Translations under genes and position numbers: made by a program
Origin: Gammaproteobacteria bacterium Ga0074134
Lineage (GTDB): Bacteria > Pseudomonadota > Gammaproteobacteria > Ga0077554 > Ga007554
DNA: 64,000 bases
Direction of reading: 5' to 3'
NCBI GenBank assembly: GCA_001464965.1
Contig: LNEJ01000028.1
Coordinates: 1-64,000, forward strand
Shown here: one piece after another, positions 1-2,098 of the stretch
Layout: each line of letters begins with the position of its first letter
How positions within the stretch are numbered: position 1 is the first letter of the stretch
The notes under the pieces: generated by a model
The model's database searches: none
Told to the model about the DNA's origin: nothing
The model's input: the letters and a program-made list of their open reading frames with translations, nothing else

Positions 1-128
1 CAGAGATGAGGAGTACCTGAGACTCAAAATTCTCACTTGCATGCTCCCGGTTATATAAATTTCATGCAAAATGACCCACACGATTTCCTGAAGACCCAAA
101 TCTTTCAATGGCATGGAGGCCGGAACTG

Positions 129-169: not shown

Positions 170-2098
170 GTGGGAGATCATATTCGTTTATACCGGTTGT
201 GGGTAATGTTTTTTGTGGCGTTTGGGATAGGTGCGTGTGGTGGTGGGAGCGAGCCTGATACCACCCCGCCCAGGATCGTATCCGTGAATCCAGCGGACAA
301 GGCGATTAGAGTGAGTGCTACCACGGATATAAAAATTGTTTTTTCCGAACCACTTGATCCCGCAACGGTGACAACATCGACGTTCAGTATCGACGGTATA
401 GTGGGTGCCAGGTTGAGCATTGATGATCGTACTCACACCGTCACTATTAGGCCGAGCGAACCTCTTTTGTTTGATGCCACCTATAAACTTACATGCGCGG
501 GGGTGAAGGATAAGGCGGGGAATGAAATGCAGAAGACCACGCTAACGTTTAGTACATATAAAAAAGCCGTAGCCAAATACGTTGGTTATACGAACGGCTT
601 GGTCAGTAATTACTCGATGGCCACTTACGACATTGATGGTCGGTTGATTCGGTGGGCTGGTTATACAGATCCGGGGCCGGACGGTGCCTGGTTCACTACC
701 GATGATGTGGCCGGAAGGCATGATTCCAATATCTGGGATGAGCGTGGGAATCTTATCCGTCAGGTTTACTATGTTAACAATGGAGCTGATGGTGTTTCGT
801 GGACCGCCGATGATGGAGTGGATGGTTATCTAGTCAAACATTTTGACGAAAATAATAACCTCTTTGAACAGTTGTCTTATTTTGATCCAGGCCCAGATAA
901 TCTGTGGTTTACTTCTGATGACAAAAAAGGATCAGGCTACAAGGCTTTTTATGATGCCAATGGCAAGTTACTTCGTGCGGTTTCTGGAGGTATCGACAGC
1001 AACGGTATTTATGTTGATGATAAGTGGCACGCGTCATATGACTATGAGGTCAAGGGGAATCGCACCAGAGAGACCTTTCATAGGCAGGCTGGAGGTGACG
1101 GTATATGGTTTACTGATGATGACGAAGTCTCACCCTATACGGCGTATGTTTACGACGTAAACGGCAATATCATTCGGGAAATCGACTACACTGGCTCTCA
1201 TGGCCTTGATGGCAAATTGTTTACTCCTGATGATGGCGTTTCTAGCCATACTTCCTTTACTTTCGATGCCAATAATAAAAAGACAAAAGAGATTTATTAT
1301 GCAACGACTGATGGTGTTGATCAGGACAGTAACGACAGAGTAAGGGGGTATTCTTCCTATACCTATAATGGCAATGGCAAGTTGACAAAAATCACACATT
1401 ATGGCGATTTGGGAAATGATGGCGTATGGTTTAACGCAGATGATGGTGTTAGGTCGTACACTGTGAACACGTATGATGATAATGGTAATAGGATTCGTGA
1501 AATTTCTTTCAATGGGGCTGGGAAGGATGGCATTTGGGTAACTGCTGATGATACCGCATACGATTACACGGCAAAAACCTTCGATATCCACGGCAATCAA
1601 CTCCGTACGGTTAGTTATTATGATGCTGGTGCGGATGGTTTGTGGTTGACGCAGGATGACAAGGTGGGTGGTTATATCTTATACGTGAAAGATGCCATGG
1701 GCGCAGATATTCGTATCCCAAAAATGTACATTAACCCTGGTGCTGATGGCATCTGGTTTACCCGTGATGATGTGCCAGCATATTCTTCTGGTTTCAATAA
1801 TGAAACAGGTTTGATTTGCAACGAATACAGTGGCGGCTTGATTGTTCTATGCACTCACTCATCGGACATTACGGATAGCAAAGGAAATATTACCCGGACT
1901 GTCGGGTACAAAAATGCCGGTGCGGATGGCATTAAATATACTCCTGATGACGTAGTGCTCGGTTACATTGAGACCATTTACGATGCGCAAGGTAATCCTG
2001 TTAAAAAGAACCGCTACAACGGCGCAGGTGGTGATGGTGCTTGGTTTACTGGAGATGATGTGCTTTTTTCCGCGTACGAAATAAATCTGGCATATTAA
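170..2098 (+). CDS. Repeat-rich surface lipoprotein with Ig-like domain
   Basis: Probable surface or periplasmic lipoprotein of unknown role, 642 aa. The GTG start is chosen because it gives a signal peptide with an Arg-containing n-region, a hydrophobic core and an IGAC lipobox (Cys23), and an AGGG lies 8 nt upstream. Residues about 30-128 resemble a bacterial Ig-like domain of the SbsA/Big_5 type (PPRIVSVNPAD...IVFSEPLDP). From about residue 155 to the end there are roughly 13 units of about 40 residues, each with a core such as GADGIWFTRDD followed by a Y...YDxxGNxIR segment like YD/RHS repeats. Eleven cores are clear and two are decayed. The Asp-rich cores could bind calcium, but this is inference. 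Base composition is more AT-rich than in the genes that follow, so recent acquisition is possible. It lies just before nagZ, with no clear functional link. Confidence 0.8.
   Translation: MGDHIRLYRLWVMFFVAFGIGACGGGSEPDTTPPRIVSVNPADKAIRVSATTDIKIVFSEPLDPATVTTSTFSIDGIVGARLSIDDRTHTVTIRPSEPLLFDATYKLTCAGVKDKAGNEMQKTTLTFSTYKKAVAKYVGYTNGLVSNYSMATYDIDGRLIRWAGYTDPGPDGAWFTTDDVAGRHDSNIWDERGNLIRQVYYVNNGADGVSWTADDGVDGYLVKHFDENNNLFEQLSYFDPGPDNLWFTSDDKKGSGYKAFYDANGKLLRAVSGGIDSNGIYVDDKWHASYDYEVKGNRTRETFHRQAGGDGIWFTDDDEVSPYTAYVYDVNGNIIREIDYTGSHGLDGKLFTPDDGVSSHTSFTFDANNKKTKEIYYATTDGVDQDSNDRVRGYSSYTYNGNGKLTKITHYGDLGNDGVWFNADDGVRSYTVNTYDDNGNRIREISFNGAGKDGIWVTADDTAYDYTAKTFDIHGNQLRTVSYYDAGADGLWLTQDDKVGGYILYVKDAMGADIRIPKMYINPGADGIWFTRDDVPAYSSGFNNETGLICNEYSGGLIVLCTHSSDITDSKGNITRTVGYKNAGADGIKYTPDDVVLGYIETIYDAQGNPVKKNRYNGAGGDGAWFTGDDVLFSAYEINLAY

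What the first reader, a model, noticed from the sequence alone, without database searches (positions are those of the whole stretch)
170..2098. Lipoprotein with about 13 DGxWFTxDD / YDxxGN composite repeats
The unit mixes an Asp-rich GADGIWFTRDD core with a YD-repeat-like strand. Two units have decayed and the others vary in length. Neither part alone is new, but the tandem combination on a lipid anchor after one Ig-like domain is unusual. It may be a variable surface adhesin or a calcium-dependent structure. The AT-rich composition fits recent gain.
Basis: partly seen in the sequence, partly recalled or inferred. Interest (0 to 1): 0.5.

Follow-up and report, generated by a model that had tools for sequence, protein, structure and literature searches.

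The report
Toxin-free YD-repeat ribbon lipoprotein
A bacterial outer-membrane lipoprotein carries a tandem array of about 13 small beta-hairpins related to those that build toxin-enclosing shells, but here they seem to form an open ribbon with an acidic loop between hairpins and no toxin; similar unnamed proteins occur in many bacterial phyla.

Summary
The repeat is real. ORF 170-2098 encodes a 642-aa lipoprotein: lipobox IGAC, one Big_5 Ig-like domain, then 14 unit positions of about 36 aa (11-12 recognised by profiles, 3 degenerate). A profile made only from other genera finds the units in this ORF alone: 0 of 522 other window frames, 0 of 200 shuffles.

AlphaFold (repeats alone, pLDDT 89.7) makes each unit one beta-hairpin followed by an ordered 12-residue loop, GxDGxWFTxDD. 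In the PDB the 37 best Foldseek rows are all YD-type shells: Rhs, Tc, teneurin, SGS1. Yet there is no Rhs-associated core, no toxin domain and probably too few hairpins to close a shell. So I read it as an open YD-type ribbon.

It belongs to an uncharacterised family: 13 of 369 class genomes, and relatives in several phyla. The gene entered the mltG-nagZ junction in the ancestor of this species and one sister; 5 of 6 relatives read have an empty site. The sister has one extra unit, an unequal-crossover hybrid.

Its ideas (variable number, gain) hold in part; calcium and adhesion remain untested. New variant of a known kind.

The parts
1..100 (.). end of a multi-copy insertion sequence that broke the assembly; it lies upstream of the gene and is not part of it
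   Evidence: window 1-100 recurs at another contig end; mltG begins 104 nt from the start of contig C14, which carries the matching terminal repeat; 8-nt duplication AAATCTTT on both sides
170..2098 (+). whole gene, 642-aa lipoprotein with Big_5 domain and hairpin repeats
170..238 (+). signal peptide with lipobox IGA-C (Cys23)
   Evidence: sequence; sister species has LGA-C
257..556 (+). Big_5 Ig-like domain (aa 30-129)
   Evidence: Pfam PF13205 E 4.8e-20; fold matches CopC, SbsC and L,D-transpeptidase Ig-like domains
599..706 (+). unit 0 (aa 144-179)
   Evidence: hairpin predicted
707..814 (+). unit 1 (aa 180-215)
815..922 (+). unit 2 (aa 216-251)
923..1018 (+). unit 3, degenerate: hairpin without the acidic loop (aa 252-283)
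   Evidence: not recognised by the profiles; strands predicted
1019..1123 (+). unit 4 (aa 284-318)
1124..1234 (+). unit 5 (aa 319-355)
1235..1336 (+). unit 6, degenerate loop (aa 356-389)
   Evidence: weak hit 11.6 bits; low-confidence loop
1337..1444 (+). unit 7 (aa 390-425)
   Evidence: the sister species has a hybrid extra unit after this one
1445..1552 (+). unit 8 (aa 426-461)
1553..1660 (+). unit 9 (aa 462-497)
1661..1771 (+). unit 10 (aa 498-534)
1772..1843 (+). unit 11, degenerate, predicted disordered (aa 535-558)
   Evidence: pLDDT below 50; not recognised
1844..1951 (+). unit 12 (aa 559-594)
1952..2059 (+). unit 13 (aa 595-630)
2060..2095 (+). C-terminal closing strand, 12 aa
   Evidence: strand predicted; 37 of 46 members with a 3' end stop within 25 aa of the last unit

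Best explanation
The gene encodes a lipid-anchored cell-envelope protein. A signal peptide with a lipobox puts it on a membrane. A Big_5 Ig-like domain acts as a short stalk. About 13 YD-type beta-hairpins, joined edge to edge, then form an open antiparallel ribbon. Canonical hairpins are each followed by an ordered 12-residue loop, GxDGxWFTxDD, so acidic loops are arrayed along the ribbon. I infer that the loops stiffen the ribbon, most likely by binding Ca2+, and that the ribbon presents its faces and loops as a binding surface (adhesin or matrix-binding protein). Its length changes by unequal crossover between units. Shown or strongly supported: the repeat, the predicted fold class, absence of an Rhs-associated core and of a C-terminal toxin domain, family distribution, insertion history, strongest purifying selection on the loops. 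Inferred only: outer-membrane sorting, surface exposure, openness of the ribbon, calcium, adhesion.
For: Repeat against controls. High-confidence model of the repeats: 404 aa, pLDDT 89.7, pTM 0.74, one hairpin per unit. Foldseek: the first 25 rows for the full model and the first 37 for the repeats are all Rhs, Tc, teneurin or SGS1 YD-type proteins. VIA-align: RhsP 8h8a Z 8.8 (rmsd 4.1, 194 aligned), YenB/RHS2 5kis Z 8.7 (5.0, 284). RHS_repeat HMM matches 7 of 20 aligned members, best E 1.9e-7; TIGR01643 above its cut-off in relative L079. No Rhs core in the protein or found in its genome. 37 of 46 members with a 3' end stop within 25 aa of the last unit. Loop omega 0.17 against hairpin omega 0.34. 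In 471 units G26, D28, D35 and D36 are 99-100%, and stay so in the 344 units without the exact search motif. Extra unit in the sister species is a hybrid: first 36 nt 83% like unit 8, last 72 nt 83% like unit 7. Three other open frames of this genome with matches to the Big_5 part put other modules after the Ig-like part, as if it were a general stalk (modules read by eye).
Against: The window protein itself falls below the curated YD/RHS cut-offs (TIGR01643 14.0 against 15.8 bits; RHS_repeat 10.2 against 22). TM-scores to solved YD shells are low (0.04-0.34), so overall curvature differs or is poorly predicted. VIA Z of 8-9 is only modest, and DUF3836 proteins score the same. No solved structure matches the loop in sequence, so calcium binding has no direct support. 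No conserved gene neighbourhood points to a function.
Confidence: 0.5

Rival explanations
1. It is a degenerate Rhs/YD toxin: a former shell that lost its Rhs core and toxin domain and is decaying.
For: Same fold class; three degenerate units; two of them evolve with omega 0.81 over 45 codons; Planctomycete Rhs proteins carry the same motif.
Against: Canonical units are under purifying selection (omega 0.27, loops 0.17). Signal peptide, Big_5 and repeats recur as one architecture in many genera. 37 of 46 members end cleanly after the last unit. Both species that share the insertion have this architecture.
Confidence: 0.12
2. It is a periplasmic structural or peptidoglycan-associated lipoprotein, tied to its neighbours mltG and nagZ.
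For: Inserted between two peptidoglycan-related genes, codirectional, 25 nt from nagZ; Big_5 resembles the Ig-like domains of L,D-transpeptidases.
Against: The site is empty in 5 of 6 relatives read. Relatives sit beside unrelated genes such as UbiD, RecG, histidine kinases and S-adenosylmethionine synthetase or a sucC-like gene (read by eye).
Confidence: 0.15
3. It is a receptor decoy or immunity-type protein that binds foreign YD/Rhs toxins through the shared fold.
For: Shared fold class with Rhs and Tc shells; lipid anchor; fast evolution of hairpins.
Against: No Rhs core gene found in its own genome and no consistent toxin neighbour; nothing tests it directly.
Confidence: 0.05

Closest known systems
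YD/RHS-repeat shells (Rhs T6SS effectors, Tc toxin BC component, teneurins)
   Same: Each repeat is a beta-hairpin in an extended sheet; Foldseek and VIA put them first; RHS_repeat HMM recognises 7 of 20 relatives
   Different: No Rhs-associated core, no toxin or cargo, about 13 hairpins instead of a closed shell, and a 12-residue acidic loop GxDGxWFTxDD after each canonical hairpin
Bacterial teneurin-like proteins (PMC13018210, passages read)
   Same: Gram-negative ones are predicted to use a lipoprotein signal and lie at the surface; YD repeats
   Different: They have FN-plug, NHL propeller, closed shell and a variable C-terminal toxin; none was detected here
OspA of Borrelia (lipoprotein with a free single-layer beta-sheet; that description is recalled)
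   Same: Engineered OspA structures come directly after the YD proteins in Foldseek (E 9e-7 and weaker); lipid-anchored open sheet
   Different: No sequence relation detected; no YD turn, no acidic loop; OspA sheet is flanked by globular domains (recalled)
MORN and MORN_2 repeat proteins
   Same: Hairpin repeats; MORN_2 weak hit E 4.6e-5; viral MORN proteins among Foldseek matches
   Different: Below the Pfam cut-off (23.6 against 29.6 bits); unit of 36 aa with acidic loop, while the MORN_2 model is 22 positions
Big_5-type lipoproteins of the same genome (contigs C60, C27, C56)
   Same: Ig-like part after a lipoprotein-like signal
   Different: They carry other modules after it; no YD units

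Membership tests
YD/RHS repeat | match to curated repeat HMMs | tested here: inconclusive
   window protein below cut-offs; 7 of 20 aligned members match RHS_repeat at E 0.1 or better, best 1.9e-7; L079 above TIGR01643 cut-off
YD/RHS repeat | each repeat is a beta-hairpin in one continuous sheet | tested here: met
   predicted models only; PDB matches; not experimental
Rhs/Tc/teneurin-like toxin | Rhs-associated core domain | tested here: not met
   absent from NCBIfam scan to E 10; none found in genome
Rhs/Tc/teneurin-like toxin | C-terminal variable toxin domain | tested here: not met
   protein ends 12 aa after last unit
Rhs/Tc/teneurin-like toxin | closed hollow shell | tested here: inconclusive
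   about 13 hairpins and low TM to shells; model coordinates could not be inspected
Bacterial lipoprotein | signal peptide with lipobox cysteine | tested here: met
   IGA-C at residues 20-23 by pattern; lipidation not tested
Big_5 domain proteins | PF13205 over its cut-off | tested here: met
   72.7 against 23.6 bits
MORN repeat proteins | MORN_2 over its cut-off | tested here: not met
   23.6 against 29.6 bits
Calcium-binding repeat adhesins | calcium bound by the repeat loops | not testable with these tools
   three near-invariant Asp per loop is only suggestive
Calcium-binding repeat adhesins | surface exposure and adhesion | not testable with these tools
   no experiment available

The most novel reading that the evidence does not exclude
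The loop-bearing YD ribbon is a separate, widespread, toxin-free branch of the YD-repeat superfamily used for surface display or adhesion. It would show that YD sheets work as open, calcium-braced ribbons, and could resemble the state from which closed toxin shells and teneurin adhesion receptors arose.
Probability: 0.2. Interest if true: 0.7.

Novelty: new variant of a known kind. Interest (0 to 1): 0.4.

Why it matters
In the passages I read, bacterial YD repeats are described as building closed shells around toxins, and teneurins as an adhesion offshoot. A broad family that keeps the hairpin but drops core and toxin, and adds a nearly invariant acidic loop after each hairpin, would be a simple system for asking what a YD sheet does when it is not a container. 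The 36-aa unit is regular enough for structural work, and orthologues one unit apart in length exist.

Tried and rejected
Whole-protein match to a known family: rejected; only Big_5 passes a cut-off. Known solved relative by sequence: none for the repeats (best profile E 0.026 to an unrelated F-box protein); the S-layer protein 2ra1 matches only the Ig-like part. Plasmid and phage records: no match at 1e-5. One viral contig matched the motif once and was not pursued beyond counting one core motif. Second repeat protein in the same genome: none. Promoter and terminator scan: no clear signal at the gene. Shared gene neighbourhood: 10 flanking proteins from 6 relatives show no common theme; one neighbour (L078) is another RHS_repeat protein and one (L131) a ShlB-type transporter. 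The VIA comparison of the full model was filled by the Big_5 domain, so the repeats were folded alone and compared again. Papers: PMC6425310 and PMC13018210, passages only; others seen as search listings only. Seven motif strings gave no paper.

Weak points of my own counts: the 471-unit frequencies come from proteins selected for at least one exact motif (window and G003 apart) and from a profile that includes window units, which inflates loop columns; one search repeats selected columns without exact-motif units (344). L054 and L149 look like the same protein, and L110, L114 and L166 are the G042, G039 and G006 genes again. Degenerate units are undercounted by the profile. Omega values are simple pairwise estimates from two species; the degenerate class has only 45 codons, and unit 11, which is gapped between the species, was left out of it.

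Full report
WHAT IS THERE. ORF 170-2098 (+) encodes 642 aa from a GTG start. It has a signal peptide with lipobox IGA-C, a Gly-rich linker, a Big_5 domain (aa 30-129, E 4.8e-20), 14 unit positions of about 36 aa (aa 144-630) and a 12-aa closing segment. The mature part is acidic (91 D+E against 57 K+R, pI 4.6). The consensus of the unit is about VxxYxxYxYDxxGNxxRxxxYxxxGxDGxWFTxDD.

IS IT MORE THAN CHANCE. A profile of 16 units taken only from three other genomes (G006, G039, G042) finds 11 units at i-E below 0.01 in this ORF. It finds none in the other 522 open frames of 60 aa or more in the window, and none in 200 shuffles of the protein. A profile that includes window units finds 12. The remaining positions are degenerate: aa 252-283 keeps a hairpin but has a short loop, aa 356-389 has lost its loop, aa 535-558 is predicted disordered. 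The sister species is degenerate at the same places, so this is older than their split. Two of these units show omega 0.81 over 45 codons, against 0.27 in canonical units.

FOLD. AlphaFold with 20 sequences gave pLDDT 80.8, pTM 0.63 for the mature protein. The repeats alone (aa 131-534, 31 sequences) gave pLDDT 89.7, pTM 0.74. Each canonical unit is a strand of about 10, a turn of 5 at DxxGN, a strand of about 9, and a 12-residue loop that is mostly predicted with confidence. In the PDB, ranks 1-25 for the full model and ranks 1-37 for the repeats are Rhs effectors, Tc toxin BC components, teneurins, a bacterial teneurin-like protein and mosquito SGS1. VIA-align puts RhsP (Z 8.8, rmsd 4.1, 194 aligned) and YenB/RHS2 (Z 8.7, rmsd 5.0, 284 aligned) first, but DUF3836 proteins tie with them (8.5), so Z alone is modest. 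TM-scores are low: hairpin order agrees, overall curvature does not. By sequence, RHS_repeat matches 7 of 20 aligned members (best 1.9e-7), and TIGR01643 passes its cut-off in L079; the window protein itself stays below both cut-offs.

WHAT IT IS NOT. Teneurins and TcB-TcC use YD hairpins to build a hollow shell closed by an Rhs-associated core (PMC6425310, passages). Here no Rhs core is found in the protein or in its genome (the control rang in 2 of 14 genomes), and there is no domain after the repeats. Of 50 proteins with 4 or more units, 46 have their 3' end in the locus, and 37 of these 46 stop within 25 aa of the last unit; the nine others are listed. One of the nine, L136, is a true Rhs protein with YD repeats and core. 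Planctomycete loci with a single motif include Rhs-core proteins (L087: core E 3e-17). The motif therefore also occurs inside classical Rhs proteins, which supports common origin.

FAMILY. 5 of 56 relatives-set genomes (own included) and 13 of 369 class genomes (own included) have it. By record titles, members with 4 or more units come from Gamma-, Beta- and Zetaproteobacteria, several deltaproteobacterial lineages, Myxococcota, Spirochaetes, Omnitrophota, Thermodesulfovibrionales, Campylobacterota (Sulfurovum) and a Planctomycete. A Big_5 match is present in 14 of the 20 aligned members; others carry Calx-beta (one member), HYR (L160) or PKD-like modules (L079, by eye), or no such domain. tblastn found none in plasmid or phage records.

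HISTORY. In the sister species G003 the gene sits between mltG and nagZ. In G001, G002 and G005 the mltG stop codon abuts the nagZ start; in G004 and G006 the gap is 133 and 61 nt. So 5 of 6 relatives whose site I read are empty; the site of G007 was not read. G006 has a distant copy elsewhere. The simplest reading is one insertion in the ancestor of the window species and G003. Low GC3 in both (0.44 and 0.47, against 0.70 and 0.67 in nagZ) fits foreign origin. Omega is 0.33 for the repeats, 0.20 for Big_5, 0.04 for nagZ and 0.13 for queG.

LENGTH CHANGE. G003 has exactly one more 36-aa unit. The other units pair one to one at 75-92% DNA identity, except the gapped degenerate unit 11. The extra unit is a hybrid: its first 36 nt are 83% identical to unit 8 and 61% to unit 7, its last 72 nt 83% to unit 7 and 49% to unit 8. 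That is the product expected of unequal crossover in the G003 lineage.

HOW IT MOST LIKELY WORKS. Lipid anchor, Ig-like stalk, open YD-type ribbon with an acidic loop after each hairpin. Between the two species the loop is more constrained than the hairpin (omega 0.17 against 0.34), and G26, D28, D35 and D36 are 99-100% across units. The loop is therefore probably the structural or functional heart of the unit. Calcium bracing is my favoured inference, at about 0.45. Display of a binding surface is likewise inferred. That a lipoprotein can carry a free single-layer sheet is precedented by OspA (Foldseek neighbour; its biology recalled).

VERDICT. A real, uncharacterised, widespread family; a new variant of a known kind. 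Moderate interest, because the function is open and the reading is testable.

Noticed in passing
window 1-100: The window (and its contig) begins inside the end of a multi-copy insertion sequence. It separates mltG (contig C14) from this gene, with an 8-nt duplication AAATCTTT; the terminal repeat resembles ISL3-type ends (recalled). The same end recurs at C27, and shorter matches at C2, C14 and C15.
   Followed up: partly
window 172-181: GGAGATCAT at the start of the lipoprotein gene equals the last bases of mltG in the empty-site relatives G001 and G002 (TTGGGAGATCATTGA), where it probably serves as the nagZ ribosome site. The mltG end of this species and of G003 has changed. The order of insertion events is unexplained.
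   Followed up: partly
L078:1863-3209: A second RHS_repeat protein (E 1.2e-9) lies directly upstream of the ribbon lipoprotein in a Desulfobacteraceae genome.
   Followed up: no
L101:393-965: A Nitrospirae protein with a Big_5-like part and a single repeat unit before a YDTSF end, possibly a minimal member.
   Followed up: no
L083, L113, L108, L076: Long relatives (1345-1630 aa in these loci) in marine Gammaproteobacteria carry 11-14 units in the middle and a 425-449 aa tail of another kind; L083 has a weak CarboxypepD_reg hit.
   Followed up: partly
L087, L136: Planctomycete Rhs-core proteins carry the GxDGxWFTxDD motif shortly before the Rhs core.
   Followed up: partly
C-termini of many members: Many members end about 12 aa after the last unit in a short strand, several with YDTxF/W-like endings; this may be a cap or a sorting signal.
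   Followed up: no
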